IMG/VR virus record: IMGVR_UViG_3300028388_002446
Span: 1-21,180 of that record
Source of the DNA: a virus
Strand: one strand, 5' to 3'
Length of the DNA: 21,180 nt
Shown: piece after piece, positions 97 through 19,757 of the stretch
Layout: every line of letters starts with the position of its first letter
Position numbering within the stretch: position 1 is the stretch's first letter
Notes under the pieces: model-generated
What the model was told of the DNA's origin: nothing
Databases searched by the model: none
Seen by the model: the letters and a program-made list of their open reading frames with translations, nothing else
Made by a program: the position numbers and the translations under genes

Positions 97-834
97 ATGA
101 ATGTATTTACTGACGAAGCAGTTGCGGAAGCTGTGCGCTTCATGGCGATTCCTGATAATGGGAAAATCCGAGCAGGATCAGCCAGCGTCCATTACATGGA
201 CGTGCGCGGCAGGCTTGACGATTACCTCAACGTCAATATGCACATCGGCGGTCTTCGTGTGCCTGCTTATCGACTGGATGGCTCGGGGCTCTGGATGAGT
301 CTCACACCGATGGAAGTGCAGTCCGCGTGGGTGCCCATTCGCAGGGCCAATGGCCTTGTTGTTTGCGGCGGGCTCGGTTTGGGCTACGCGCCGCTGCGAA
401 TGGCAGCCAAGAGCAATGTCGAAGAAGTCATCGTCTATGAAACAGATGGAGACTGCATTGGCCTGTTCGAGCAGCTCCACGGGATGCGCAAGGAAGCGGA
501 AAAGATACTCATTCGCCATGAAGATATACGCGAAGATGCCGACGAAATCACGGCGGACTTCCTGTGGATGGACGTGTACCAGACCCTGCTACCTGATGAG
601 GTGCTGACAGATGCGAAACTCTTTACCGCCTTACCGGGTATCCAAGAGTATCGTTTCTGGGGTCAGGAGCTGTGTACGTTTATGATCGCGCACGACGAGG
701 GAGAGATTCCCTACTGGGCGACTTCGGAAGAGCGCGAGCTGTTTTCCATGCACTTCTTGTCGGGCCTTGCAAACCTGCGGCCGCCTTTTATGTACGTGGA
801 TTTCGCCAACGAGGTCATGGAGGTTATGGCATGA
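97..834 (+). CDS. Rossmann-fold, SAM-dependent methyltransferase-like protein
   Basis: A 245-residue protein, start chosen at ATG 97 because AAGGAGAAAGG lies just upstream; an in-frame start at 19 has no such site. Residues 87-100 hold a glycine-rich nucleotide-binding loop (VVCGGLGLG) followed after about fifteen residues by a strand ending in an acidic residue (VIVYE, E115), the usual layout of motifs I and II of class I SAM-dependent methyltransferases and spermidine-synthase-like folds. A second hydrophobic strand with acidic residues (ADFLWMDVY, 153-161) fits motif IV. No target-recognition domain or NPPY/DPPY motif is visible, so the substrate is unknown and loss of activity is possible. 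It overlaps the next gene by ATGA and is probably transcribed with it up to the terminator at 1219. Confidence 0.6.
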   Translation: MNVFTDEAVAEAVRFMAIPDNGKIRAGSASVHYMDVRGRLDDYLNVNMHIGGLRVPAYRLDGSGLWMSLTPMEVQSAWVPIRRANGLVVCGGLGLGYAPLRMAAKSNVEEVIVYETDGDCIGLFEQLHGMRKEAEKILIRHEDIREDADEITADFLWMDVYQTLLPDEVLTDAKLFTALPGIQEYRFWGQELCTFMIAHDEGEIPYWATSEERELFSMHFLSGLANLRPPFMYVDFANEVMEVMA

Positions 835-1190
835 AGTTCTACGAGGAAGTTCTCGACAGCAACTACGGGACACCTGATCCGATGAAGGTGCTCATGTTTA
901 TTGGGCACTCTTGCTCGAACAAAGACGATCTGTACCAAGACGTAGTAAAAAGCTCGCCGGCGATCTTCGTGCTGGCTGACGGTGCACTGTCTATTCACGG
1001 AGCCTATGGTACCGGCGAAAGAGAGCCCACTTCGAAAGCTGAGTTTTTCGCGGCCTTCGAAAAGCAGGTGCTGCGTGAAAAGCAGGACGTGCAGATGATC
1101 GTTCTTATGTCCTCGCTGGGGCATTTTCAAAACCCTGTTCGGCGCAGCCGCCAAAGAGGTGTTCGAAAATTGGTTCGATTCTCACCTTGA
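831..1190 (+). CDS. small protein with an apparent frameshift near its end
   Basis: The gene starts at ATG 831, overlapping the previous stop as ATGA, and reads as a 119-residue product ending in a basic tail unlike the rest (PVRRSRQRGVRKLVRF). If one G is skipped in the GGGG run at 1118-1121, the frame continues as IFKTLFGAAAKEVFENWF and ends at TAG 1210-1212, seven bases before the terminator. That tail looks far more like natural protein and uses the space to the terminator exactly. I infer a real product of about 126 residues that is either frameshifted by mutation or sequencing error, or made by +1 slippage. I do not recognise the family; the N-terminal half has alternating strands and helices (KVLMFIGHSC, AIFVLADGAL). 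Confidence 0.5.
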   Translation: MKFYEEVLDSNYGTPDPMKVLMFIGHSCSNKDDLYQDVVKSSPAIFVLADGALSIHGAYGTGEREPTSKAEFFAAFEKQVLREKQDVQMIVLMSSLGHFQNPVRRSRQRGVRKLVRFSP

Positions 1191-1218
1191 CCTGACCAAA
1201 ACCTTGCACTAGTCTTCT

Positions 1219-5400: not shown

Positions 5401-5727
5401 ATGATTGACACAGGGCAAAACCCTGCTAGAGTGGTTGTCGTGCAGGATCTCGGCTTCGCTTACCACGACGCCGAAAACTTCGGAAAACTGGAGTTTCTGT
5501 TGCCTGCCAACGAGTCGCCTGAAAACTATATGCGGGTGGCCTCGATAATCCGGAAGCGTCTCTGGGACTTGGCGTTCAGTCCAAGGGACTACCTGCTGTG
5601 CAGCGGTGCGCCTTCTGTTCTGATGCAGGCCGCCGTAGAGGCCAAAGCTCTTTGCAGGAGCGAGGGGTTTTTTGTGCTGCAGTGGGATCGGGATATTCGA
5701 GGCTATCTCCAACGGAGAGTGCTATGA
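5401..5727 (+). CDS. hypothetical protein, 108 residues
   Basis: ATG 5401 has GGAG six bases upstream; the in-frame ATG 5389 lacks a site. The protein mixes strands and helices (ARVVVVQDLGFAYHD; YMRVASIIRKRLWDLAF; FFVLQWDRDIRGYL). I do not recognise the family. It is preceded by an 86-base gap with no convincing gene and overlaps the next gene by ATGA. Confidence 0.6.
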   Translation: MIDTGQNPARVVVVQDLGFAYHDAENFGKLEFLLPANESPENYMRVASIIRKRLWDLAFSPRDYLLCSGAPSVLMQAAVEAKALCRSEGFFVLQWDRDIRGYLQRRVL

Positions 5728-6173
5728 CTGATCTGGAAGAGTTCGAGCCGGCACCTGATGCCGATGTGCTTAAAGACCTGACCGATACTGCGGAGGAGCT
5801 TATCGGGATCAGGGACAATATTGCGAGCCTGAACGAGACCCTGAAATCCTTGGCCGAGGAGGAGCGCAACCTCTCGCAGGTGGTGCTGCCTGAGAAGATG
5901 AGGGAGGCGAAGCTGGAGTCTTTTTCTCTGGAGGGTGGCCTGACAGTCAAGATCGAGCACAAGGTCAAGGCGTCTCTCAGCAAGGCCCGCAGGAAAGAGG
6001 GCTTCGCATGGCTGCGAGAAAACGGCTTCGGTGCGTTGATCAAGGAGCGAGTCGTAGAAGAAAGCATCCACCACGGCACCCTGACCGCCTTCGCCAAAGA
6101 GCAGCTACGCGAAGGCAACCCGCTGCCGGAGTGCTTCACCGTGTACGAGTTCGATCACACGGAGGTGAAGTGA
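5724..6173 (+). CDS. conserved phage protein with coiled-coil N-terminus
   Basis: A 149-residue protein starting at ATG 5724 after CGGAGAG. Residues 14-55 form a charged coiled coil; 56-110 (LPEKMREAKLESFSLEGG, then SLSKARRKEGFAWLRENG) match the pattern of a conserved phage protein often found near replication genes, where a helix is followed by a small beta domain and a FAWLRENGFG helix. I recall the pattern but know of no function. It overlaps the next gene by TGATG. Confidence 0.65.
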   Translation: MTDLEEFEPAPDADVLKDLTDTAEELIGIRDNIASLNETLKSLAEEERNLSQVVLPEKMREAKLESFSLEGGLTVKIEHKVKASLSKARRKEGFAWLRENGFGALIKERVVEESIHHGTLTAFAKEQLREGNPLPECFTVYEFDHTEVK

Positions 6174-6445
6174 TGACGCTCGAACAAACACTGGACGAGC
6201 TGTCGAAGTATGCGCGACCGTACCTGAATCAGCACGAAGACAATACATGGTCGTGTAGTGCTGTTCTTCGGGTCAATGTTAAGGGCTCTGATTTCAAGGT
6301 GCGCTCTGACTTCAACCACCCTACTGCTACAGCCGCTGCTTCAACGTGTCTCTGCAGAGTAAGGGCCATGCTCAAGGATATTCACAAGATGGCCCCACAG
6401 GTGCCGCACAACCGGCCGGGTGTGACGTATGTACACAATGCATGA
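6173..6445 (+). CDS. hypothetical protein, 90 residues
   Basis: ATG 6173 overlaps the previous TGA and follows GGAGG. The protein has a helical start (TLEQTLDELSKYARPYL), a central beta region (TWSCSAVLRVNVKGSDFKVR) and a helix with two cysteines (CLCRVRAML). No family recognised. It overlaps the next gene by 17 bases. Confidence 0.6.
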   Translation: MTLEQTLDELSKYARPYLNQHEDNTWSCSAVLRVNVKGSDFKVRSDFNHPTATAAASTCLCRVRAMLKDIHKMAPQVPHNRPGVTYVHNA

Positions 6446-6767
6446 TGCGAAGTTTATGGCGGAGATCCTTGCTCCGGGGCTGGAGAGGCTTGGGCTCTAC
6501 ATCGCGGTAGCTGGTGGCACCCTGACCAAGATGGGGGCTAGGAAAGATATCGACCTTGTTCTCTATGGCAATCGCCAGACGGAAAGGTGGCACTGGCCGA
6601 CTGCTGTAGATGACTTCCTTTTTATAGCTCGCCGACATTACAGAGTTACTGATGTGAAGAAGTACGGGTTCTGCACGAAGATGAAACTCGACGGTATACC
6701 TGTGGACCTGCTCGTTCCGGAGTTTCCCAGAGACGCTGATGCAGAGGGCAATCCTTATGGATCTTAA
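6429..6767 (+). CDS. nucleotidyltransferase-fold protein
   Basis: A 112-residue protein; ATG 6429 is used, with ATG 6438 as an alternative. It has the pattern of minimal nucleotidyltransferases: a GG turn (29-30), then RKDIDLVLY with the DxD pair D40/D42, and a third acidic strand PVDLLV (D93). This is the Mg2+-binding triad that transfers a nucleotide to RNA, protein or small molecules. The glycine motif is GGTLT rather than GS. The next gene, an XRE-type regulator, overlaps it by 11 bases, which resembles toxin-antitoxin arrangements, but phages also carry lone nucleotidyltransferases. Confidence 0.65.
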   Translation: MYTMHDAKFMAEILAPGLERLGLYIAVAGGTLTKMGARKDIDLVLYGNRQTERWHWPTAVDDFLFIARRHYRVTDVKKYGFCTKMKLDGIPVDLLVPEFPRDADAEGNPYGS

Positions 6768-7212: not shown

Positions 7213-7992
7213 ATGGGAAATGCAGTACGCAAGACCGAAGAGCAGTTGCCGCTTGCGTTCGATGCCAATGAGTTCGAGGGACTCGGGCAGGAGAACACGC
7301 AGGCCGATGACTTTGCTATTCCGTTCATCAACATCGCGCAAGCGCTGTCGCCGCAGCTCAAGCGTTCCGATGCTGCCTACATCGAAGGGCTGCAGACGAA
7401 TCAACTGTTCAACTCTGTGACCGGCGAGATTTTCGAGGATGGCGTCACCGTGATCCCCGTGAAGTACGAGCGCAAGTATCTGGAGTTCAATCTTCGCGAG
7501 AACGGCGGTGGCCTCGTGGCCATTCACGATGACTACGATCCGGAGATCCTGAAGCGGCGCGACGACAAGAACCGATCGATCACTGACGACGGCACGCAGA
7601 TCGTGGAGACGCGATCTTTCTACTGCCTTGCGCAGGGCGGGAACGGTGACTGGTATCCGGCGATGATCTCCATGAAGTCCACCGGCCTGAAGAAGGCGAA
7701 GCAGTGGATGAGCATGGCGCAGGATGTGAAGTGGCCGAAGAAAGATGGCAGCAAGTTCATTGCGCCGATGTTCGCGAGGAAGTATCGGATCGGGGTTGCG
7801 GAAGAATCGAGCAAGGGCAACACGTGGGGCAACTGGACGGTGCAGCGTCTCGACGATGAGCCCCTGACCCCTGAAGACGCCCTGTTCAACATGGCCTATG
7901 ACCTGTACAAGTCGCTCGACAAGTACCGCGTCGACTATGCCGCGCAGGCTGAGACCGGCGAATCCGAGGAAGAGGAGGTTCCGCACCAGTAG
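7213..7992 (+). CDS. probable single-stranded DNA-binding protein
   Basis: A 259-residue protein with an AAGGAG site before ATG 7213. It matches a widespread phage family placed beside primase and polymerase genes, recognisable by IPFINIAQALSPQLK (residues ~36-50), NSVTGEIFEDGVTVIPV (~67-83) and ISMKSTGLKKAKQWM (~152-166). Members are commonly taken as replication-associated, single-stranded DNA-binding proteins. An acidic tail (ESEEEE) at the C-terminus, as in many SSB proteins, could recruit partners. The function is inferred from the tail and from context. It is a single gene between its own leader and the terminator at 8011, as expected for a highly made protein. Confidence 0.7.
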   Translation: MGNAVRKTEEQLPLAFDANEFEGLGQENTQADDFAIPFINIAQALSPQLKRSDAAYIEGLQTNQLFNSVTGEIFEDGVTVIPVKYERKYLEFNLRENGGGLVAIHDDYDPEILKRRDDKNRSITDDGTQIVETRSFYCLAQGGNGDWYPAMISMKSTGLKKAKQWMSMAQDVKWPKKDGSKFIAPMFARKYRIGVAEESSKGNTWGNWTVQRLDDEPLTPEDALFNMAYDLYKSLDKYRVDYAAQAETGESEEEEVPHQ

Positions 7993-8047: not shown

Positions 8048-8653
8048 ATGCAGCCAACAGAAGAACAGGTACAGCGCATGGCCGCGTTGTACGATGGGCT
8101 CGACAGGGCCTACGGCCAGTACACCACCAACTCCACCCCAAACCCCGAAACAGGCAAGCTCGAAGGCCAAGCCCTGACCGTCAAAGACATGGTCACACCG
8201 GAGCTTTGGCACGCACACCTTTCCGGCGAACAATCGCTCGGCATAGTCCCCATCGATGACAACGGCATGGTCAGCTTTGCCGTGATCGATATCGACGACT
8301 ACGGATTTTCTCTCGAAACGATCAAGCAGGTTGTGCGGGACTATCAGCTTCCCATGCTGTGCCTGCACAGCAAGAGCGGCGGCTTCCACCTCACGGCGTT
8401 CTTCAAGGAGAAGGTGCCGGCGAAGTTCGCGAAAAAGCAGGTGTCCTGTGTCCTGAAGCTACTGGGCAGCCCCAAGGCGGACCTGTTCCCCAGACAGGTG
8501 AAGCTGGCCAATGAAAATGATGTCGGGAACTGGATCAACATGCCGTACTTCGGCGACACGCGGAAGCTGGTCAGCGGCAAGTCGCTCGATGCGTTTCTCG
8601 ACATGGCCGAAGCGATGCAGGCCACGCAGAAAGAGTGGGCGGCGCTTGGGTAA
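8048..8653 (+). CDS. archaeo-eukaryotic-type primase, catalytic part
   Basis: A 201-residue protein from ATG 8048 (GGAG seven bases upstream). It carries the signature of AEP primases close to the TOTE/phage branch: VIDIDDY with the metal-binding D81/D83, HSKSGGFHL (107-115, the S-x-H nucleotide-binding motif), DLFPRQ (145-150) and NWINMPY (161-167). It would make primers for the family A polymerase downstream. It ends abruptly after a helix (AFLDMAEAMQATQKEW). Homologues usually continue through a helical PriCT-like region to a zinc motif; here those parts are missing or in the next frame. Catalytic residues are intact, so it may be active alone. Confidence 0.82.
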   Translation: MQPTEEQVQRMAALYDGLDRAYGQYTTNSTPNPETGKLEGQALTVKDMVTPELWHAHLSGEQSLGIVPIDDNGMVSFAVIDIDDYGFSLETIKQVVRDYQLPMLCLHSKSGGFHLTAFFKEKVPAKFAKKQVSCVLKLLGSPKADLFPRQVKLANENDVGNWINMPYFGDTRKLVSGKSLDAFLDMAEAMQATQKEWAALG

Positions 8654-9536: not shown

Positions 9537-9802
9537 TGAGCCACACAAAAGGGCCATGGGAGTGGGAATACGGCCCGTATTCCCTTCTGAGACAAACAGC
9601 AACCAGAAAACACATTCTGTATTACACGATGGACGATGACGGCATCTATTGCACAAACCTTGACGACTACGACTTGATCGCTGCTGCCCCTGATCTGTAT
9701 GCAGCGCTGGTGATGTTTCTTGAGGAGGACACAGGCCCAGACCATCCCGCGAAAGAAGTAGCGAAGAAGGCTCTTGCCAAAGCCAGAGGAGAATCAGCAT
9801 GA
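9536..9802 (+). CDS. conserved phage protein of the AAAPDL type
   Basis: An 88-residue protein beginning at ATG 9536 (TAATG overlap). It shows the layout of a very common phage early protein: an N-terminal HTKGPW motif, a beta-rich middle and the hallmark DLIAAAPDLYAAL at about 60-72, ending in an AKKALAKARGE helix. Similar sequences occur in many phages of Proteobacteria near Ea22-like genes. The function is unknown. It overlaps the next gene by ATGA. Confidence 0.75.
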   Translation: MSHTKGPWEWEYGPYSLLRQTATRKHILYYTMDDDGIYCTNLDDYDLIAAAPDLYAALVMFLEEDTGPDHPAKEVAKKALAKARGESA

Positions 9803-10053
9803 CGCTTGCGGAAAAGATCATGGCCACTGAGGCCGTGGAAAACTTGGAGTGGGTGACTGCAACACAAATCGCTGAGCAGTTGGGCGCTAGGCGCGATTCT
9901 GTGCGGGCCGCTCTCTCAAACATGGTTGCGATGGATGTCATGGAGGTTCAACAGGATTGCGCCTATCGGCCAGCGAAGTACCGCAAGATCGTTCGGCACT
10001 GGATAAACTCACGCCCGTTGGCTGATACGTCGCAGGGGCCGACGAGGCCGTAG
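9799..10053 (+). CDS. small winged-helix DNA-binding protein
   Basis: An 84-residue protein from ATG 9799 after AGAGGAG. Residues 16-50 (EWVTATQIAEQLGARRDSVR then AALSNMVAMDVMEV) form a helix-turn-helix with a wing, typical of small transcription regulators. The last residues (INSRPLADTSQGPTRP) look unnatural. From about 10041 the other frame already encodes helicase sequence, so this tail is probably read out of frame across a deletion junction. The natural end is likely near YRKIVRH. Confidence 0.6.
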   Translation: MTLAEKIMATEAVENLEWVTATQIAEQLGARRDSVRAALSNMVAMDVMEVQQDCAYRPAKYRKIVRHWINSRPLADTSQGPTRP

Positions 10054-10112
10054 AGCGAGCATCGGCTCGATTCCCCGGCCAGAAGTTCCCCTACTTCCGA
10101 ACACTGCACTCC

Positions 10113-11333
10113 ATGTGCTTTCACCACACCGGCATGAAGCGCCGGCACGTCATGGACAACAGGGACTACGCGGAGCTGCAGGAGCTTCTCGGCTTCCCCG
10201 TCCACCTCGAAGGTGGCAGCGGCCGCATGGCACGGCACGTCGCCGAGCAGGCCAGAATGCGGTGCCTGCCTCTCGACGAAACGCAGCGCCTGTTACGCGC
10301 TCATGTGAACCCCTATCAGGTCCGCGAATACGCCAAGACCCTAGAAGCCTACAAGCTGGCCCACGGCCTGTTCGACTACACCGACATGCTGGAGCGTGGG
10401 GCTCGTGCGGGCTCGCTTGATGTGGACGTAATGATCGTGGACGAGGCGCAGGATCTGACCGACCTGCAGTGGCGCGTCGTGAGAGCGCTTACTCCTGATC
10501 ACGCGGACGTTTACTGGGCGGGGGATGATGACCAGACGATCCACGAATGGGCCGGCGCGTCTCTTGATGCTTTCCAGCGGCTGGGCGATGAGGCCGACGA
10601 AGTCATCGTGCTCGACAAGTCCTATCGCCTGCCGAGGGCGATCTTTGACTTTGCTGCGGGCCTTATTGGGCGCGTGAGCCGGCGCTACGCCAAGGAGTGG
10701 CGACCGCACGCCGAAGGCGGCTGCGTGAAGACCGTGGCGAGCTACGCCATGCAGAACCTGCCGGTGAAGGAGGGCTCGTGGCTCTTGCTGGGCCGCAACA
10801 GGCACGACCTGCCCGTATTCGAAGAGCTGCTGCGCAAGCAGGGGGTGCCCTACTTCCTGAACGGAAAGCTGGTGAACGACAACTACCTCAACGTGATCGT
10901 CAACTGGGAAAAGATGCGGCACGGCGAGAAGCTGAATGCGCGACAGGTGAACCAGATATACCGCCTCGGCCTCGGCCTTCCCGCAACAGCACAGAAGGGC
11001 CTGAAGTACGGCATCAAGGATATGCCTACCGACGCCGTCTGGTACGAAGCCCTCGACCGCATACCGTCCCGCGTCGTCTCCTTCATCCGCAAGGCCAGAG
11101 CAGCCGGCGAGGATATCCGCAACCCAAGGGTCCGTGTGTCGACGATACACGGCTGCAAGGGCATGGAGGCTGAGCACGTAGCCTGCCTGTCCGATATCTC
11201 ACCAAAGAGCGTGGACACCATGCTTATGAAGCCCGACGAAGAGCACAGGGTCTTCTACGTGGCGGCAACACGAGCCAAGCAGAGCCTGTACCTCATCGGC
11301 CCACAAGGAGGTAATCACTATCGATGGCACTGA
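10113..11333 (+). CDS. UvrD/Rep-like SF1 helicase lacking its Walker A region
   Basis: A 406-residue reading frame holding most of a superfamily 1 helicase: motif II IVDEAQD (108-114), III AGDDDQTIHEW (136-146), IV SYRLP (170-174), V STIHGCKGMEAEHV (343-356) and VI EEHRVFYVAATRAK (376-389). The frame is open back to 10026 and reads DEAVERASARF and PYFRTLHS, the part that follows motif Ia in related phage helicases. The Walker A loop (GPPGTGKT-like) that should precede it by a few dozen residues is absent. Upstream sequence belongs to the winged-helix gene. No start with a ribosome binding site precedes ATG 10113. ATP hydrolysis by this product is unlikely; it is probably a truncated or decaying gene. 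Confidence 0.75.
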   Translation: MCFHHTGMKRRHVMDNRDYAELQELLGFPVHLEGGSGRMARHVAEQARMRCLPLDETQRLLRAHVNPYQVREYAKTLEAYKLAHGLFDYTDMLERGARAGSLDVDVMIVDEAQDLTDLQWRVVRALTPDHADVYWAGDDDQTIHEWAGASLDAFQRLGDEADEVIVLDKSYRLPRAIFDFAAGLIGRVSRRYAKEWRPHAEGGCVKTVASYAMQNLPVKEGSWLLLGRNRHDLPVFEELLRKQGVPYFLNGKLVNDNYLNVIVNWEKMRHGEKLNARQVNQIYRLGLGLPATAQKGLKYGIKDMPTDAVWYEALDRIPSRVVSFIRKARAAGEDIRNPRVRVSTIHGCKGMEAEHVACLSDISPKSVDTMLMKPDEEHRVFYVAATRAKQSLYLIGPQGGNHYRWH

Positions 11334-12946
11334 TATCGATCGACATTGAAACCAAAGACCCCGACCTAAAAACAAGGGGCGCTGGTGTCAGGAGAGGCGA
11401 CGGCCACATCTGCGGCATAGCGATTGCCTCCGAAGCCAAACCAAGAGGCATCTACTACTCCCTAACCCACCCCGAATCCGAAAACACCGACTGGAACACT
11501 CTGCAGCGAGTTCTTAGCGACCATGCGCGGCTCTGTACCGGCGTCGTGGGCGCGAACCTGATCTACGACCTCGACTGGATCGAAGAGGAGTTCGGCGTCA
11601 CCTTCTACCATGTGCCGTGGTACGACGTTCAGGTGGCTGAGCCCCTGATCGACGAAGAGACGACTTACGGGCTTGGCGACCTCGGCGAGCGCTATCTGGG
11701 GACAGGGAAGAACGAAGACGCCCTGTATCGGTTCTGCGCTGAGCACTTCGGCGGCAATCCAACGCGCCGCGCTCAGGCCAAGAACATCTGGCGATGCCCT
11801 TCACGCATCGTCGCGCCCTACGCCGAGGAAGACGCCGCGCTGGCGCTGGCCGTGTGGAAAAAGCAGCGCGAGGTTTTGCGGGAAGAGGGTCTGTGGGAAA
11901 TCTTCGACCTCGAACGCCGCCTGCAGCCGATCCTGCTGCGCATGAAACGCCGTGGCGTGCGGATCGACGAGGAGCACCTCGCCGCGCTGCGCCGCAAGTT
12001 CGCCGCTGACAGGGACGGCCTGCTGCACGAGTTGGGCGACGTGAACATCTGGGCCGCTGCCTCTATTGCGGAGGCGTTTGATGGCGCGGGCGTTGCGTAC
12101 CCAAGAACAGAGAAGGGCAACCCTTCGTTCACGCGCCAGTTTCTGGAGTCCTGCCAGTGGCCTACCGCGCAGAAGATCGTGAAGGCGCGGCGGCTCGACA
12201 AGCTCATCGGCACCTTTCTGGACAACGCGATCAGCAAGAACCTCGTGCGCGGCCGTCTGCACTGCCAGTTCAACCAGCTCAGGGGCGATGAGTATGGGAC
12301 TGTTACGGGCCGGCTGTCCCAGATCGAGCCCCGCCTCGTCCTGACCTACGCCGCGAATCTGCGTGGGGCCATGGACATGATCAACGCCTACGCGGACAAC
12401 CCCGACCTCGACTGCTACGACGGCATGATGAAGACGATGCCGCCATGGCTCGACCGCAACGCAGTGAAGGCTATCTATCTGGGCTCGATCTACGGCATGG
12501 GCATCGACAAGCTGGCCGACCAGATGAACGTGGCCCGAGAAGAAGCAGAGAGGGCCTACTGGGCCTTCCACGACTCCGCGCCCTACCTGCGCCAGCTCGC
12601 CAAGATGGTTACGCGCCTCGCCGAGACCAAGGGCAGGGTGCGGACCATTGGGGGCCGCTACCGGCGCTTCAAAGATACCCGCTTCGCCTACAAGGGCCTC
12701 AACGCGGTGATACAGGGAGGCGCTGCCGACATTATGAAGAGGGCGCTCGTGACCGGCGTGGAAGAGGGGTTGGAGCTACCGCTTCTGACCGTGCATGACG
12801 AGCTTGATTTTTCACTGCTGGATAAAGGGCAGGCGCTTTGGTGGCGGGGGATTATGGAGGAGGTGTACTCCGACCAGTTGAAGGTGCAGATGAGGGTGGA
12901 CCCTGAGATGGGGCCGTCGTGGGGCGAGGTGGAGAAGGTGCAATGA
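11324..12946 (+). CDS. polA: family A DNA polymerase with internal loss of motif A
   Basis: A 540-residue replicative polymerase with an excellent AAGGAGGT site. The 3'-5' exonuclease is complete: D7/E9 (IDIET), NLIYDLDW (78-85) and YAEED (166-170). The thumb and first palm motif (CQFNQLR, GTVTGRLS 325-332) follow. Then the sequence jumps to QIEPRL (333-338). In homologues about 38 residues stand here, including the NPNLQQIP motif and the DYS of motif A, whose aspartate binds the catalytic metals. Motif B (R378, K382, Y390-G391) and motif C (HDE 491-493) are present. Leucine 386 occupies the position of E. coli Phe762. As read, it may proofread but should not polymerise. Confidence 0.88.
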   Translation: MALISIDIETKDPDLKTRGAGVRRGDGHICGIAIASEAKPRGIYYSLTHPESENTDWNTLQRVLSDHARLCTGVVGANLIYDLDWIEEEFGVTFYHVPWYDVQVAEPLIDEETTYGLGDLGERYLGTGKNEDALYRFCAEHFGGNPTRRAQAKNIWRCPSRIVAPYAEEDAALALAVWKKQREVLREEGLWEIFDLERRLQPILLRMKRRGVRIDEEHLAALRRKFAADRDGLLHELGDVNIWAAASIAEAFDGAGVAYPRTEKGNPSFTRQFLESCQWPTAQKIVKARRLDKLIGTFLDNAISKNLVRGRLHCQFNQLRGDEYGTVTGRLSQIEPRLVLTYAANLRGAMDMINAYADNPDLDCYDGMMKTMPPWLDRNAVKAIYLGSIYGMGIDKLADQMNVAREEAERAYWAFHDSAPYLRQLAKMVTRLAETKGRVRTIGGRYRRFKDTRFAYKGLNAVIQGGAADIMKRALVTGVEEGLELPLLTVHDELDFSLLDKGQALWWRGIMEEVYSDQLKVQMRVDPEMGPSWGEVEKVQ

Positions 12947-13338
12947 GCGAGAAGACGCATGTATGGCATGTGGTCAGGGATGGGATGCGCGGCCTGTGGA
13001 AGGCGACGAGGGTCGAGGCCCGCTACCCAGCCGGCATCCCTGATGTGTGCTTCGAGCATGGCTGGATGGAGCTGAAATGGTCGCCGCGAGCCGCGAAAAA
13101 GGGGCGCGTGCAGACGCTGCCGCACTTCAAACCGGAGCAGAGGCGGTTCCTGCAGGACTGGGACAACGCCTTCCTGCTTTGGCGGGTCGGTGATGAGTGG
13201 TTCCTGTTCGATAACTTTTTTGATTTGATAGGGCACGTTCCTATAGCCAATTTGCATAAGCTGGCATTGGCACATTGGAACGGACCCCCTGTGTGGCCGC
13301 ACCTTGCAGCAAAGTTGAATGTGAGGAGTCCGGTGTAA
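12943..13338 (+). CDS. PD-(D/E)xK (VRR-NUC-like) nuclease
   Basis: A 131-residue protein starting at ATG 12943 (ATGA overlap with the polymerase, GGTGGAG upstream). Residues 28-45 read YPAGIPDVCF then HGWMELKW, the PD...ExK catalytic pattern (D34, E43, K45) of small VRR-NUC or Holliday-junction-type nucleases, followed by the supporting HFKPEQRRFL helix and FLLWRVGDEWFLF strands. It likely trims replication or recombination intermediates. Located at the end of the replication operon; the 240-base gap after it marks the operon end. Confidence 0.78.
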   Translation: MSEKTHVWHVVRDGMRGLWKATRVEARYPAGIPDVCFEHGWMELKWSPRAAKKGRVQTLPHFKPEQRRFLQDWDNAFLLWRVGDEWFLFDNFFDLIGHVPIANLHKLALAHWNGPPVWPHLAAKLNVRSPV

Positions 13339-13578
13339 GTTGTTGATTGCGGGACGGTTGTTCGATTTCACATATAGATACATGTTACAGGGGGAGGGGT
13401 GGTTACTTACTAAAAAATTTTTTACTAGCTTACCCTTGGTGTAGCTGTAACAGGTGTAACACGTGTAGCACGTAGGGTTATTTCACATTGGCGCGCGCGC
13501 AGGAACAGCTTGTATCCTGCTGGCAGGTACATGGGGGTCAAAAATCCCCTAATGCGAAATTCTGGAGGAGCCCTCGGG
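13339..13578 (+). promoter_or_regulatory. non-coding gap: candidate origin or operator region
   Basis: This 240-base gap separates replication from packaging genes. It holds an A6T6 block (13412-13423), the 9-bp repeats at 13439-13472, a GC-alternating tract (13491-13500), a near palindrome CCTGC-TG-GCAGG (13516-13527), and a GGGG/CCCC hairpin (13533-13549) ahead of the GGAGGAG site of the next gene. An AT-rich TATAGAT lies at 13373, but I see no matching -35 box. A promoter for late genes is expected here, but I cannot point to one. Confidence 0.5.
13439..13472 (+). repeat. 9-bp iterated repeats
   Basis: Near-tandem copies TGTAACAGG, TGTAACACG and TGTAGCACG (13446, 13455, 13464) with a shorter TGTAGC in front (13440). 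They include the palindrome ACACGTGT (13459-13466). An AT-rich block lies just upstream. Iterons beside an AT-rich element are typical of replication origins or of repressor and ParB-like binding sites; a ParB-domain gene lies directly downstream. Confidence 0.6.
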
Positions 13579-14796
13579 ATGGAAATCGTCTCTGTTGATC
13601 CGATCAAACTCAGGCCACACCCTGACAACGCCAAGATCCACACGGACAAGCAGATCGATCGGATCGCGAAGTCCATGGAGAACACGGGCGGATCGATCCA
13701 GCCCATCGTCGTGGACGAGGATTTTGTGATCCTCGCCGGCCACGGTCGGTGGATGGCCCACAAAAAACGTGGTGACGTGGAATGCCCTGTTATCGTGAAG
13801 AGCGGGCTGTCTCTCGCGCAGAAGCGCAAGTTTTTGCTCGCAGATAATCAGACCAACGCGATGACCGGCAGCGACTTCGACGCCGTCGCCAAGATCCTGC
13901 AATCGCTCGACGGCCAGCAGGTCGATGTGTCTGATATCGGGTTCAGCGAGAAGGAGCTGGACAAGTACCTCGCCTTCGAGGAGGAGGAAGCGGAGCGCGA
14001 CATCATGGCCGAGGCCGGCGAAGCCTCCACCACGGCCCGCGAGCTGAAGGAATCCATCCTGCTCCAGCCAGAGGAGTACGTCGGACCCTTCGAGCTGCCG
14101 CGACTCAAGGAGCACATGCTCGTCGACGAGCTGCCGGAAGAGTTTGTGGTCTGGATGAATCGCCACCGGACCCCGCCACTCGGCAAGGGCCAGATGCACT
14201 ACCACCTGTTCGGTCGCGAGAGCACCAAGGGCCTCGATCCGGCGAACACCCTGATCTCGTTCTACATCGACGATTCGCGGTTTGAGCGGGTCTGGTCGAA
14301 GCTCAAGGAGAACACGCAGCGGTTCCTGAACTCCAACGTCTGGGGCCTCGTGATGCCGGACTTCTCACGGAACATCGATTCGTGGCCCCTGCCCATGAAC
14401 GTCTGGAACACCTACCGGAATTACTACTGCGCCCGCTACTGGCAAGAGGCCGGCCTGCCAATCATCCCCAACCTGTCCTTCGGTTCGCTGGACACCATCG
14501 AAGCGTTCCTCGCGCCCATACCAAAACACTGCCCGGTAGTCTCCGTGCAGCTTCAGACGATTGGGGGCCGAACGATGAAATCAGGGCAGGGCGGCAAGGG
14601 CGCGGACCCTGACGACATGCGAGCACTGGTAGGCACAGCGCTGGACCTGATCAAGCCTGAATCGCTCGTGGTCTACGGCGGCGAACCCGGCTTGATTCTA
14701 GGGCAGGAGTTGTGTACAAGACATGGGACACGCTTTGTTGGCGTGGCCAACCGAGCCACGGCGGCTCAGGATCTTGATCAAGAACGAGGGTTTTAG
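13579..14796 (+). CDS. ParB-like nuclease domain fused to DUF4417
   Basis: A 405-residue protein; ATG 13579 is used because GGAGGAG lies eight bases upstream, whereas the in-frame start at 13510 has none. Residues 1-131 are a ParB/sulfiredoxin-like domain (LRPHPDNAKIHTDKQI, then ILAGHGRWMA with GHGR at 54-57, then LLADNQTN). Residues 132-225 are an acidic linker. Residues 225-395 match DUF4417 (ISFYIDDSRFERVW, MPDFSRNIDSWP, NTYRNYYCARYW, then SLVVYGGEPG), a domain of unknown function seen in mobile elements. It sits between the iterated repeats and the terminase genes, so binding to DNA or a role in packaging or partition is plausible, though the ParB fold in phages is often a nuclease or CTPase-type accessory. 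Confidence 0.82.
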   Translation: MEIVSVDPIKLRPHPDNAKIHTDKQIDRIAKSMENTGGSIQPIVVDEDFVILAGHGRWMAHKKRGDVECPVIVKSGLSLAQKRKFLLADNQTNAMTGSDFDAVAKILQSLDGQQVDVSDIGFSEKELDKYLAFEEEEAERDIMAEAGEASTTARELKESILLQPEEYVGPFELPRLKEHMLVDELPEEFVVWMNRHRTPPLGKGQMHYHLFGRESTKGLDPANTLISFYIDDSRFERVWSKLKENTQRFLNSNVWGLVMPDFSRNIDSWPLPMNVWNTYRNYYCARYWQEAGLPIIPNLSFGSLDTIEAFLAPIPKHCPVVSVQLQTIGGRTMKSGQGGKGADPDDMRALVGTALDLIKPESLVVYGGEPGLILGQELCTRHGTRFVGVANRATAAQDLDQERGF

Positions 14797-15014: not shown

Positions 15015-15467
15015 ATGGCGCGTGTCGGCCGCCCTGCTGCGGGCGACTTTTGCGATACGGAGACCGGCGAGTTCACCGAGGAGGGCAGAAACCTGATCCG
15101 GAGGGCCGCCGGTCTTGGCTTACGCCACAAGGCAATCGCCGCCCTGATCGGCATCACGCAGCCGACGTTCAGCAAGCGGCTCAAGCTCTTCCCCGAAGCC
15201 GAACAAGCCTACGAGCTTGGCAAGGCCGAGGCGGACCTTCAGGTATCCAACGCCCTGTTCCAGAGGGCCATCGGCGGCGACATGGCCGCCATCCGCTGGT
15301 ACGAGATGACGCGCACCGACCGGAACCCGAACATTCCGGTCGTCGAAGACGCTACCAGCTCATCAGTTATCGAAGTCCCTGCAACACTTCCGGAGGATGA
15401 ATGGACGGCGCGGTTCTCCCCACCGGAGAGGCTGGATTCGCCACAGAGCGTGGTGAGCGACCAGTAG
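15015..15467 (+). CDS. terS: terminase small subunit
   Basis: A 150-residue protein with an N-terminal helix-turn-helix (about 36-57: LRHKAIAALIGITQPTFSKR) and a following helical oligomerisation region (EAEQAYELGKAEADLQVS; ALFQRAIGGDMAAIRWYEM), as in small terminases that recognise the packaging site on DNA. The acidic C-terminus would contact the large subunit. No clear ribosome binding site precedes ATG 15015, so coupling to the gene three bases upstream is likely. Its last 67 bases overlap the large subunit gene in another frame. Confidence 0.85.
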   Translation: MARVGRPAAGDFCDTETGEFTEEGRNLIRRAAGLGLRHKAIAALIGITQPTFSKRLKLFPEAEQAYELGKAEADLQVSNALFQRAIGGDMAAIRWYEMTRTDRNPNIPVVEDATSSSVIEVPATLPEDEWTARFSPPERLDSPQSVVSDQ

Positions 15468-16897
15468 CATATCGGCCCCAGCCGGGGCCGCAGGCAGCCT
15501 TCCTATCCTGCCCCATCGAAGAGGTGTTCTTCGGCGGCGCGCGTGGCGGCGGCAAGACGTTCGTACTCGCGCTGGACTGGGTCAAGCATCAGGCGAAGCA
15601 CGGGCGTCATGCCAAAGGCGTCATCTTCCGGAAGTCCTACAAGGAACTCGAAGAGGTCGTCGCCACCTTCCGCGAGGTGACGCGATCCGCTGGCGGCCAG
15701 ATCGTCGCGCAGGAATGCCGGATGCCGAACGGGGCTGTGGTCAAGTTCCGGCACCTGAACAGGGACGCTGACGCCGACGACTATCAGGGCCACCAGTATT
15801 CGTGGATGGCATTCGACGAGATCACGAACTGGGCCAACGAAGCCCCAATCAAGAAGGTCAAGGCGTGCGTGCGCTCTGCTGTCGTGCCGGCCGGCGAGCT
15901 GCGCATCCTCGCCACCGGAAACCCCGGAGGTGCCGGCCACAACTGGGTCAAGGCGCGGTACATCGATCCTGCGCGGCCCTACGAAATTATCAAGGAGTAC
16001 GATGAGGACACGAAGACCTACAAGAGCCGTGTCTTCATCCCATCCCTGCTCAAAGACAACCCTGCCCTCGCCGAAAACGACCCCGGCTATCTCTCTCGAC
16101 TCAAGGACGCCGGCCCAGCATGGCTGGTCAAGGCATGGGTCGAAGGTGACTGGTCCATCGTGGCCGGCGGCATGTTCGACGATGTACTAGACACGAAGAC
16201 GCCGCACGAGCATGGCGGCTTGGTTTGGGGGACGGGCTCTATTTGCCCACCTTTCAAGATTCCTGCCTCGTGGCGCGTAGACCGTGCTTTCGACTGGGGC
16301 AGCAGCCGGCCCTTTTCCGTGGGCTGGTATGCGGAGAGCAATGGCGACGAGGCTATTGCTCAGAACGGGTGTCGGATCATTGTTCCACGTGGGACAGTGT
16401 TTCGGATCGCGGAATGGTACGGCTCGACAGGCGAGCCCAACGTGGGCCTGAAGATGCTGGCCAAGGACGTGGCCAAGGGCATCCTGAATCGCGAGAAGCG
16501 AATGAGGGACAGCGGCATGATCGCCGTGACTCCTCGGCCGGGGCCTGCGGACTCAGCGATCTACAACGCCGAGGATGGGGTATCGATCGGCGACAACATG
16601 GCCTCGGCTGGCGTGAAGTGGCAGCCTGCGGACAAGCGTCCGGGCTCTAGGACGAATGGCTGGGAGTGTATGCGCGAGATGTTCGCTGCTGCTGCGCAGC
16701 CTGTAATGGAGAGGCCGGGGCTGATAGCATTCGACACCTGCCGCGAGTTCTGGCGTACTGTTCCGGTGGCCCCACGCGACGACAAGCGCATCGACGACGT
16801 TGCGACGGACTCCGAGGATCACATTGCAGACGAGGTGCGCTATCGCTGCATGAACCTTGTGCGGGAACTGAAGGTGCGCCGGATAAAGGGAATCTGA
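15401..16897 (+). CDS. terL: terminase large subunit
   Basis: The 498-residue packaging motor. ATG 15401 follows CGGAGG with a short four-base gap, inside the small-subunit gene. ATPase: Walker A GGARGGGKT (45-53), Walker B WMAFDE (135-140) and coupling motif ATGNP (171-175). Nuclease: FDWG (D298), PADS (D384) and DHIADE (D477), the three metal-binding acids of the RNase H-like domain. The ending IDDVATDSEDHIADEVRYR is typical for TerL proteins that work with DUF4055 portals. It is full length with no missing motif. It cuts DNA and drives it into the prohead through the portal encoded next. Confidence 0.94.
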   Translation: MDGAVLPTGEAGFATERGERPVAYRPQPGPQAAFLSCPIEEVFFGGARGGGKTFVLALDWVKHQAKHGRHAKGVIFRKSYKELEEVVATFREVTRSAGGQIVAQECRMPNGAVVKFRHLNRDADADDYQGHQYSWMAFDEITNWANEAPIKKVKACVRSAVVPAGELRILATGNPGGAGHNWVKARYIDPARPYEIIKEYDEDTKTYKSRVFIPSLLKDNPALAENDPGYLSRLKDAGPAWLVKAWVEGDWSIVAGGMFDDVLDTKTPHEHGGLVWGTGSICPPFKIPASWRVDRAFDWGSSRPFSVGWYAESNGDEAIAQNGCRIIVPRGTVFRIAEWYGSTGEPNVGLKMLAKDVAKGILNREKRMRDSGMIAVTPRPGPADSAIYNAEDGVSIGDNMASAGVKWQPADKRPGSRTNGWECMREMFAAAAQPVMERPGLIAFDTCREFWRTVPVAPRDDKRIDDVATDSEDHIADEVRYRCMNLVRELKVRRIKGI

Positions 16898-16898
16898 C

Positions 16899-18317
16899 AT
16901 GGTCAAGTCGATCACACAGGTGGGCTCCGGTGTTGCTACACAGCACATTGAGTACACGTACTACATGGACGAGTGGGAAATCCTGCGTGATCACTTGGCG
17001 GGTTCTCGCCGGATCAAGGAGCAGGGCCAGAAGTACCTGCCGCGTCTCTCCGAACAGGATGACGACGAGTACGATGCGTACAAGCTGCGTGCCCTGTACT
17101 ACGATGCGACAAAGCGCACGCATCAGGCGATGCTCGGCGCGATTCTCTCCAAACCACCCGTTTTCTCCGACTTCGATGAGGAAAGGCACAAGGAAGCGTT
17201 CCGGCAGATAACGCCGGACGGCTACTCCTTCCAGACTTTCGTGCGCAACGTGCTCAGTGAGCTGATCGCTGTCAGCCGGTGCGGGGTGCTTGTGGATCTT
17301 CCGATGACTGGCGGCGACGTGCCGTACTTCGTCATGTACAAGGCCGAGGACATTCTCAACTGGCGATTCGAGCGCGTGAACGACGAGATCATCCTGACCA
17401 TGGTCGTGTTGCGGGAGACGGAGGAGGAGGCGCAGAACCGATACGGCACGCAGCTTGTCACCTACTACCGAGTGCTCGAACTGGTCGATGGCGTATACAT
17501 GCAGTCCAGATACCGGCAGGTCGTGAAGGGCAGCAAGGGCAACACCGAGCTGGGCACCGAGCTTGTTGACGATGACATTGTGCCGTTGAAAGTCGGGCAG
17601 CCGCTTGAGCGCATCCCCTTCGTGTTCTTCACGCCGAAGGGCAATGTGCCGACCTGCGAATCGCCCCTGCTCATGTCGATCGCTGAGATCAACGCCAGCC
17701 ACTATCGGTCCAGCGCGGATCTTGAGCATGGCCGGCACTTCACTGGTCTTCCTACGCCTTGGGTTGCGGGCTTCGATGTCGACATGGAGCTGACCATTGG
17801 CTCCACGAGGGCGTGGGTATCTGACAATCCTTCTGCGAGGGCGGGCTTTTTGGAGTTCACCGGCTCCGGCCTGACCAACCTGCAGGCGGCCCTTGCCGAG
17901 AAGCAGGAACAGATGGCAACGATGGGCGCACGGATGCTCAGGCCACCGCGCAGCGGCGTGGAGGCGGCAGAAACGGCGCGCATTTACCAGAGCGCGGAGA
18001 GCGGGACTTTGGCCTCGCTGGCTCAGGCCGCCTCGGAATCCATGACGGACCTGATCCGTCACTGGCTTCGCTGGCAGGGCATCGAGGACTCCGCTTCGGT
18101 AGAGATGAATCAGGACTACGTTGACACGCGCATCGATGCGCCCATGCTGACGGCGCTGATGAACTCTTGGCTGGCGGGCTCTATCAGCTACGAGACCCTG
18201 TTCTACAACATGCGGCAGGGTGAGGTGCTGCCTGATTCGGCTACCGTGGAATCGGAGCTGGAGAAAATAGAGCAGGAAGGTATGCGCCGAGATGTCCCGC
18301 CAACTGACGCTGAATGA
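16899..18317 (+). CDS. portal protein, DUF4055 family
   Basis: A 472-residue protein following the terminase by one base. Its N-terminal region (YYMDEWEILRDHLAGSRRIK, then GQKYLPRLSEQDDDEYDAYK) and RALYYDATKRTHQAMLGAIL match the DUF4055 family of phage portals, as does IPFVFFTPKGN in the middle and the helical crown near the C-terminus (AAETARIYQSAESGTLASLA). Portals form the twelve-fold ring at one head vertex through which DNA enters and leaves. Position between TerL and the minor head protein is the standard order. It overlaps the next gene by 26 bases. Confidence 0.88.
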   Translation: MVKSITQVGSGVATQHIEYTYYMDEWEILRDHLAGSRRIKEQGQKYLPRLSEQDDDEYDAYKLRALYYDATKRTHQAMLGAILSKPPVFSDFDEERHKEAFRQITPDGYSFQTFVRNVLSELIAVSRCGVLVDLPMTGGDVPYFVMYKAEDILNWRFERVNDEIILTMVVLRETEEEAQNRYGTQLVTYYRVLELVDGVYMQSRYRQVVKGSKGNTELGTELVDDDIVPLKVGQPLERIPFVFFTPKGNVPTCESPLLMSIAEINASHYRSSADLEHGRHFTGLPTPWVAGFDVDMELTIGSTRAWVSDNPSARAGFLEFTGSGLTNLQAALAEKQEQMATMGARMLRPPRSGVEAAETARIYQSAESGTLASLAQAASESMTDLIRHWLRWQGIEDSASVEMNQDYVDTRIDAPMLTALMNSWLAGSISYETLFYNMRQGEVLPDSATVESELEKIEQEGMRRDVPPTDAE

Positions 18318-19233
18318 GGCCCTCGCCTCACAGGTAACACTGCGCTCTGCGGAGGTCATGCGTAGTACAGGAGAAGCGCAGCAAAGAGCCCTCGCCCACC
18401 TGATCCGTCTGGAGCAACAGCTTACTGGCATCCTTGCCCAGTCTTCGCGGGCCAATTACCGAAAGCTGCTGAAGCAGGCTCGCGACACCATCAAGGCCAA
18501 CGTATCGGCAGCGGAGGCTGAAGCGTTGCGGCAGCAGTCGGCGCTCATTGTGTCCGAGGCGCAGGCCACGGCGCAGGCGATAAACATTGCGGTTGGCGGG
18601 CCTTTGGCTACGGCCCCTTCGTCGGAGGCTTTCGTGACGGCGGTCAATCGCAGGGCCGTGGTCATGGGAGCGCCAGCCGAGGAGTGGTGGCGGCGTCAGT
18701 CGCGGCGCACTTTCGAGCGATTCTCCGACATAACCCGCCAAGGCGTGCTGCTCGGCCGCACCAATCAGGAAATGATCTCCGACTGGTCCATGGCCAGCCG
18801 CCAGCTTCGCCGCCATGCCGAAGCGCAGGTACGCACGAGTGTCCAGTCCACCACCAACATGGCCCGCCTAGAAACCCTGAAACGCAACAGCGACGTGATC
18901 AAGGCTGTGCAGGCCGTGGCCACCCTCGACCTACGAACATCGGAAACCTGCAGGGACCGCGACGGCATGTCGTGGCCGCTCGATTCCCCCAGTTTCCCCG
19001 GCCCACCACCATGGCACTGGAACTGTCGAACTACACTCGTGCCGGTGCTGAAGGAATACGACGCCCTGAAGCCTTCGGACAAGCTGAAAGTCCCTGCTGC
19101 TACTAGGGCCTCGATGAACGGGCAGGTGCCGCGATCCATGACCTACTGGGAATGGTTCCGCACGCTCGACGATGGCGATCAGATCAAGGTGCTTGGCCGG
19201 AAGGAATGGGAAAAGTGGAGGGCCAAGCAATGA
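18292..19233 (+). CDS. minor head protein, Mu F-like
   Basis: A 313-residue protein starting at ATG 18292, eleven bases after AGGAAGG. The long N-terminal region is alpha-helical. The C-terminal domain at 205-255 holds the Mu gpF/SPP1 gp7 signature: VATLDLRTSETCRDRDG then PPWHWNCRTTLVPV, with C220, H242 and C245 conserved. These proteins bind the portal and a few copies enter the head, where they help assembly or DNA ejection. Order and length fit the family. It overlaps the sulfotransferase gene by ATGA. Confidence 0.87.
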   Translation: MSRQLTLNEALASQVTLRSAEVMRSTGEAQQRALAHLIRLEQQLTGILAQSSRANYRKLLKQARDTIKANVSAAEAEALRQQSALIVSEAQATAQAINIAVGGPLATAPSSEAFVTAVNRRAVVMGAPAEEWWRRQSRRTFERFSDITRQGVLLGRTNQEMISDWSMASRQLRRHAEAQVRTSVQSTTNMARLETLKRNSDVIKAVQAVATLDLRTSETCRDRDGMSWPLDSPSFPGPPPWHWNCRTTLVPVLKEYDALKPSDKLKVPAATRASMNGQVPRSMTYWEWFRTLDDGDQIKVLGRKEWEKWRAKQ

Positions 19234-19757
19234 AGCCGAAGATGGCCGCCGCGCCGCGCTATAACTGGATCTGGCCGAACAAGAGCTTCGCCTTCATCGG
19301 CGTGCCTAAGTGCGGGTCGATGACGATGCGCAAGGCGCTGGCCTGCAGCAATGGCGTGGTCAGGGAGAAGACGCACCAGATGGCCTGCCGACTGGCCGTG
19401 ATTCGAGACCCTGTTGAGCGGGCCGTGTCGGCCCACGCCCACGGATGGCCGGACGTGCCCATCGAAGACTGGTGGCTGGAGGTGAAGCGCGACCTGTACT
19501 TCGACGTGCATACGACGCCCTACACGGACTGGCTTGGCTGCGACGCCAACAGGATTGTCTGCATCGAAGATATCGACGAATGGTGGCCGGATTTGCGGGC
19601 CATGTTCCGGCATTTGCCGTCCATGCCGCCGCACGAGAACAGGGCCAAGGCGAAGGCCACCCTATCGGCACTCCTCGCCCATGACATTGCCAAGGTCTAC
19701 AGGCGAGATATCGCGCTGTTTGGGCGAGCTAGACACACGGTACGGGCTGTGTTTTAG
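19230..19757 (+). CDS. sulfotransferase-like protein
   Basis: A 175-residue protein with GGAGGG before ATG 19230. FIGVPKCGSMTMRKAL (22-37) is the 5'-phosphosulfate loop of PAPS-dependent sulfotransferases, and RLAVIRDPVERAVSAHAHG (54-72) is the 3'-phosphate-binding motif with the usual RDP...R...S. It would transfer sulfate from PAPS to an unknown acceptor, perhaps a virion or cell-surface glycan. It is shorter than typical bacterial members (about 200-300 residues), so a minimal version or loss of a substrate lid is possible. Its position in the head operon suggests modification of virion or host surface, which is inference. Confidence 0.78.
   Translation: MKPKMAAAPRYNWIWPNKSFAFIGVPKCGSMTMRKALACSNGVVREKTHQMACRLAVIRDPVERAVSAHAHGWPDVPIEDWWLEVKRDLYFDVHTTPYTDWLGCDANRIVCIEDIDEWWPDLRAMFRHLPSMPPHENRAKAKATLSALLAHDIAKVYRRDIALFGRARHTVRAVF

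What the first reader, a model, noticed from the sequence alone, without database searches (positions are those of the whole stretch)
12305..12340. DNA polymerase lacks motif A, including the catalytic aspartate
The reading frame passes from GTVTGRLS (residues 325-332) directly to QIEPRL (333-338). In family A polymerases these are separated by roughly 35-45 residues that contain the NPNLQQIP motif and the DYS of motif A. Here the block, and the metal-binding aspartate with it, is gone, yet frame, exonuclease, motif B and motif C are intact. The join sits at TCC|CAG, both common codons in the missing block's ends, consistent with a microhomology deletion. The product could proofread or bind DNA but should not polymerise, so the phage would need another polymerase.
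Basis: partly seen in the sequence, partly recalled or inferred. Interest (0 to 1): 0.85.

Follow-up and report, generated by a model that had tools for sequence, protein, structure and literature searches.

The report
Broken phage DNA polymerase gene
In this 21-kb phage fragment the DNA polymerase gene really lacks the piece that carries a catalytic aspartate, but the primase and helicase genes beside it are broken in the same way while all other testable genes are intact, so this is a damaged or mis-built record of an ordinary polymerase rather than a new kind of enzyme.

Summary
The gap is real in the sequence. The 540-aa family A polymerase (11324-12946) runs GTVTGRLS|QIEPRL at 12319/12320. 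Its closest relatives have 37 residues there (111 nt), including NPNLQQIP and the DY of motif A. All 169 relatives checked keep the block, and no IMG/VR contig has the join.

The interpretation changes once the surroundings are checked. The primase is missing about 65 codons and shifts frame near 8650. The UvrD-like helicase is missing its first ~41 codons, including the P-loop, near 10020-10032. Nine other genes show no lesion. The polymerase shows no other decay: exonuclease motifs, motif B and motif C are intact and its divergence is ordinary. Relatives offer at most 4 nt of microhomology at the join, so assembler repeat collapse is excluded.

Best reading: a recently inactivated, or artefactually joined, copy of a normal replication polymerase in a record whose whole replication core is disabled. 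Chimeric or gap-closed sequence and true deletions in a defective genome remain about equally likely; reads would decide. The left edge coincides with an intein site used by the closest relative. In passing, relatives carry polymerase inteins with an HNH nuclease gene nested in another frame.

The parts
11324..12946 (+). family A DNA polymerase gene, 540 aa, 3'-5' exonuclease domain + polymerase domain without motif A
   Evidence: Pfam PF01612 and PF00476; alignments; RBS-like AAGGAGG just upstream; same N-terminus as L091
12317..12322 (+). deletion join (TCC|CAG); 111 nt / 37 residues missing relative to L093 and L091
   Evidence: at most 4 nt microhomology available in 109 relatives; AF2 model is disordered only at 317-331 and at the last 4 residues
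8048..8653 (+). 5' part of a TOTE-type AEP primase, ends at a stop just after a second join (about 8640-8652)
   Evidence: aligns to residues 16-204 of ~510-aa primases; L091 homologue is one intact ORF of 518 aa
8647..9360 (+). 3' part of the same primase in a different frame; about 65 codons missing between the two parts
   Evidence: aligns to residues ~273-502 of the same relatives; 0 of 60 complete relatives are split
10029..11333 (+). UvrD-like helicase without its first ~41 codons (P-loop GPPGTGKT); third join at about 10020-10032
   Evidence: homology begins at the residue after FTR of motif Ia, and an in-frame TGA (10023-10025) precedes it
9799..10053 (+). small winged-helix-like gene whose tail runs into the third join
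   Evidence: ORF reads into the helicase sequence in another frame

Best explanation
The gene is a normal phage replicative family A polymerase (exo+) recorded with a 111-nt in-frame loss that removes the strand carrying the motif A aspartate, so the product cannot polymerise. It is one of three block losses confined to 8.6-12.3 kb that disable primase, helicase and polymerase together, while nine other genes are intact. It is therefore an inactivated or artefactual allele, not an adapted enzyme. The join is of the non-homologous or microhomology type (0-4 nt). It arose either as real deletions in a defective, non-replicating phage or prophage genome, or in chimeric or gap-closed sequence during library making or assembly. 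I rate these two about equally (artefact 0.45, real deletions 0.42). Shown: the missing blocks, their clustering, and the absence of other decay. Inferred: that no functional product exists and how the joins arose.
For: Block missing in the window and present in 169/169 relatives. Closest relatives L093 and L091 have intact motif A. Primase split with ~65 codons missing and a frame change. Helicase lacks the P-loop block. Base rate in relatives: 0 of 60 complete primases split, and helicases lack the N-terminus only where a contig end cuts them. No lesion in ParB-DUF4417, TerS, TerL, portal, MuF-like, VRR-type, Pam3 gp34-like and the 5703 gene; the SNF2 helicase matches its relatives as a single piece. 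Polymerase divergence is ordinary: window-L091 53% versus L093-L091 57%, with no internal stops, so the loss is very recent or artefactual. At most 4 nt of repeat available at the join.
Against: No reads could be examined, so artefact and true deletion cannot be separated. Repeat collapse, a common short-read assembly cause of a deletion, is excluded at the polymerase join. The polymerase loss is in frame (1 in 3 by chance), and its left edge lies exactly at an intein site, which hints at a biological cause.
Confidence: 0.87

Rival explanations
1. Real deletion seeded by homing: an HNH endonuclease from an intein-bearing relative cut the intein-free allele at GRL|S, and end repair through the TCC microhomology deleted 111 nt.
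For: The left edge of the deletion is exactly the insertion point of intein A in L093 (GTVTGRL|C...HN|SSS), which carries a nested HNH gene. Other phage PolA inteins sit at a similar site (L219) or just after SQ[IV]E of motif A (L203, L228). By rough arithmetic, a random edge falling within 2 nt of one of two sites in a 1.6-kb gene has a chance of about 1%.
Against: Does not explain the primase and helicase losses, whose positions carry no intein in L091/L092. Repair of homing cuts normally copies the intein. The coincidence was found after the fact.
Confidence: 0.08
2. A replication-disarmed but particle-making element (gene-transfer-agent-like or PBSX-like): selection keeps packaging and head genes while primase, helicase and polymerase have been inactivated.
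For: All three replication-core genes with testable relatives are broken and none of the nine other tested genes is.
Against: The three broken genes are physical neighbours, so a local defect explains the pattern equally well. No host flank, integrase or second copy is visible in the 21-kb fragment. The lesions are too fresh (no point decay) for a settled element.
Confidence: 0.07
3. A functional protein: an exonuclease or DNA-binding subunit derived from PolA, with polymerisation done by another enzyme.
For: The frame is open, exonuclease motifs are kept, and the AF2 model is confident outside the join (pLDDT 89; only 317-331 and the last four residues are below 50).
Against: No relative shares the architecture. 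Motifs B and C, useless without motif A, are still conserved. Neighbouring replication genes are dead. No second polymerase in the window.
Confidence: 0.03
4. A fractured gene whose missing block is supplied in trans (split intein or trans-splicing).
For: Close relatives have inteins in this gene, one at exactly this site.
Against: No intein half flanks the join. Neither the block nor intein or HNH sequence occurs in the window. The flanks are joined directly.
Confidence: 0.01

Closest known systems
Phage family A DNA polymerases of PHROG 17 (relatives L093/L091; phage DSL-LC04, phage 023Pt_psg01, Dinoroseobacter phage R5C)
   Same: Exonuclease and polymerase domains, motifs B and C; DSL-LC04 and 023Pt_psg01 also have a primase, a UvrD-like helicase and an SNF2-type helicase
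   Different: Lacks 37 residues with NPNLQQIP and the motif A aspartate; also lacks a ~26-residue loop after residue 450 that most, but not all, relatives have
Vibriophage phiVC8 DpoZ (7pbk) and Klenow-type Pol I
   Same: Best sequence and fold matches among solved structures
   Different: Those are complete enzymes with the motif A strand
divPolA1 and other phage PolAs with one inactive domain (PMC11348598)
   Same: Family A protein with one activity lost
   Different: There the exonuclease is lost and the polymerase kept, as a conserved family; here the polymerase motif is lost in a single record

Membership tests
Family A DNA polymerase (homology) | significant match to the DNA_pol_A and DNA_pol_A_exo1 models | tested here: met
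   PF00476 115 bits, PF01612 27 bits, both over cut-off; 7pbk and Klenow by fold
Family A DNA polymerase (active) | motif A with catalytic aspartate (DYSQIE) | tested here: not met
   missing block; present in 169/169 relatives
Family A DNA polymerase (active) | motif B (R...K...YG) | tested here: met
   R378, K382, Y390, G391 invariant
Family A DNA polymerase (active) | motif C (HDE) | tested here: met
   H491, D492, E493 invariant
DnaQ-like 3'-5' exonuclease domain | D-x-E, second and third acidic motifs | tested here: met
   D7, E9, D82, D170 invariant
Replication-disarmed domesticated phage element | chromosomal location and vertical conservation of the lesions | not testable with these tools
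   21-kb record without host flank; no sister record found
Assembly or library artefact | reads do not support the joins | not testable with these tools
   no reads available; repeat collapse excluded for the polymerase join

The most novel reading that the evidence does not exclude
A phage-derived, particle-making element whose primase, helicase and polymerase have been inactivated in turn by short deletions, one of them starting at a homing-endonuclease target in the polymerase gene, while packaging and head genes stay under selection.
Probability: 0.07. Interest if true: 0.55.

Novelty: already known. Interest (0 to 1): 0.2.

Why it matters
If taken at face value the gene would suggest a polymerase that works without motif A. 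The companion lesions show that it should not be catalogued as a functional variant and that this record should not be used to infer how the virus replicates. The comparison also exposed phage PolA inteins with an endonuclease gene nested in another frame, which may be the more interesting lead.

Tried and rejected
Other contigs with the same join: none. Missing block displaced elsewhere in the window: none. Repeat collapse in assembly: relatives offer no more than 4 nt of shared sequence at the two edges. Idea that the lost blocks are the most conserved ones, and so were lost to a systematic cause: only the polymerase block is unusually conserved (top 6%; helicase 30%, primase 52%). N-terminal truncation of the polymerase: L091 starts at the same place. 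Intein explanation for the primase and helicase lesions: L091/L092 have no inteins there. Rfam search for introns in L091/L093: nothing. Host prophage relatives: only 8 distant ones. N runs as scaffold gaps: none in the window or in the 693 kb of loci held at that point. Text searches for phage family A polymerases lacking the catalytic aspartate gave only the opposite case, a lost exonuclease.

Full report
Observation. The window is a 21,180-base IMG/VR virus record. The ORF at 11324-12946 encodes 540 residues with PF01612 (3'-5' exonuclease) and PF00476 (DNA_pol_A). The frame passes from GTVTGRLS to QIEPRL at TCC|CAG, 12319/12320. Alignment to eight phage polymerases, 88 relatives and then 169 relatives shows a single clean gap there. 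Relatives have the block SSxPNLQQIPAR...IRxLFIPEEG..W...DY, usually 37-38 residues long. Every one of the 169 keeps it. The closest relatives, L093 and L091, found through the terminase and 36-66% identical in the matched polymerase stretches, have 37 residues that the window lacks. No IMG/VR contig carries the join in either common spelling.

What is left. Exonuclease residues D7, E9, D82 and D170, motif B (R378, K382, Y390) and motif C (HDE 491-493) are all kept. An AlphaFold2 model built with 26 relatives is confident overall (pLDDT 89), with the only long stretch below 50 at residues 317-331, i.e. at the join (the last four residues are also below 50). It matches phiVC8 DpoZ and Klenow-type polymerases. 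From established knowledge of family A polymerases, motif A supplies one of the two metal-binding aspartates and a central palm strand, so polymerisation should be lost. This was not assayed.

Surroundings. The two genes of the same replication core just upstream are also damaged. The primase (AEP-TOTE) is split. Its 5' part ends at 8653 and its 3' part continues in another frame to 9360, and the ~65 codons between them in L091 are missing. The UvrD-like helicase begins, after an in-frame stop, at the residue following FTR of motif Ia. The first ~41 codons, including GPPGTGKT, which L091 and L092 have intact, are missing, and the upstream small gene runs into the join. Among relatives, 60 of 60 complete primases are unsplit, and helicase N-termini are missing only where the contig ends. 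In contrast ParB-DUF4417 (13510-14796), TerS (15015-15467), TerL (15401-16897), portal (16899-18317), MuF-like (18292-19233), the VRR-type nuclease (12943-13338), the Pam3 gp34-like gene (7213-7992) and the gene at 5703-6173 align to the closest relatives without a gap of more than 8 residues, and the SNF2 helicase (1277-2989) aligns to its relatives as one piece over 82% of its length.

Age and cause. The polymerase shows no internal stop and no faster divergence. In the shared C-terminal half, window-L091 identity is 53% and L093-L091 identity is 57%, in line with terminase and portal. The loss is therefore very recent or not biological. In 109 relatives the two edges of the block share 0-4 nt, so assembler repeat collapse is excluded unless the window's own lost sequence was unlike all of them. 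A microhomology-type deletion, a chimeric library molecule, or a wrong gap closure remain. No N runs were seen in the window or in the 693 kb of loci held.

Intein site. In L093 the same gene carries two inteins. Intein A (267 aa) is inserted at GTVTGRL|S, exactly the left edge of the window's deletion. Intein B (245 aa) sits in motif B, and L091/L092 carry it too. Intein A matches Pfam Intein_splicing (E 6.5e-6, below the curated cut-off); intein B was recognised by its ends and its position only. This makes a deletion seeded by a homing cut possible for the polymerase. It does not explain the other two lesions.

Conclusion. The finding is confirmed as sequence and reinterpreted. It is a disabled or artefactual copy of an ordinary replicative PolA in a record whose replication core is broken in three places. 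A functional motif-A-less polymerase is very unlikely. Whether the joins exist in real DNA can only be settled with the reads.

By-product. HNH genes nested in the +2 frame of PolA inteins occur in several further phage contigs. In intein B the HNH frame of L093 versus L091 differs by 29, 31 and 71 at codon positions 1, 2 and 3, as expected for a selected gene. A published analogue, an out-of-frame HNH inserted in phage methylases without any splicing domain, is PMC11855218. My text searches found no paper on the intein version in the open library, which is not proof that none exists.

Noticed in passing
L093:227-1027 and 1301-2035; L091 intein B around 6000-6750; L185, L187, L189, L191, L193, L203, L219, L228: Phage PolA genes interrupted by inteins (C...(H/S)N|C/S/T ends) that carry an HNH endonuclease gene nested in the +2 frame while the intein frame stays open; insertion sites lie at motif B, after SQ[IV]E of motif A, and at GRL|S. 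The HNH frame is under purifying selection (codon-position differences 29/31/71, L093 vs L091).
   Followed up: partly
window 831-1210: ORF 831-1190 seems to change frame near 1110-1120: another frame continues as WGIFKTLFGAAAKEVFENWFDSHLDLTKTLH*. Possible fourth lesion; no homologue found.
   Followed up: partly
window about 12670-12690: Polymerase also lacks a ~26-residue loop (LWEP...GIKR) between GRYRRF and FAYK that L093, L091 and most relatives have; L008 lacks most of it too, so it may be natural.
   Followed up: partly
window 19152-19757: Sulfotransferase-like gene (PF03567) in a phage fragment, also present in L093 (43% identity).
   Followed up: no
window 13510-14796: ParB-like N-terminus fused to DUF4417 near the terminase genes; 68-77% identical in the closest relatives, the best conserved gene tested in the window.
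   Followed up: no
L203, L228: Inteins of the same family inserted directly after SQ[IV]E in polymerase motif A, about 9-12 nt from where the right edge of the window's deletion would lie.
   Followed up: no
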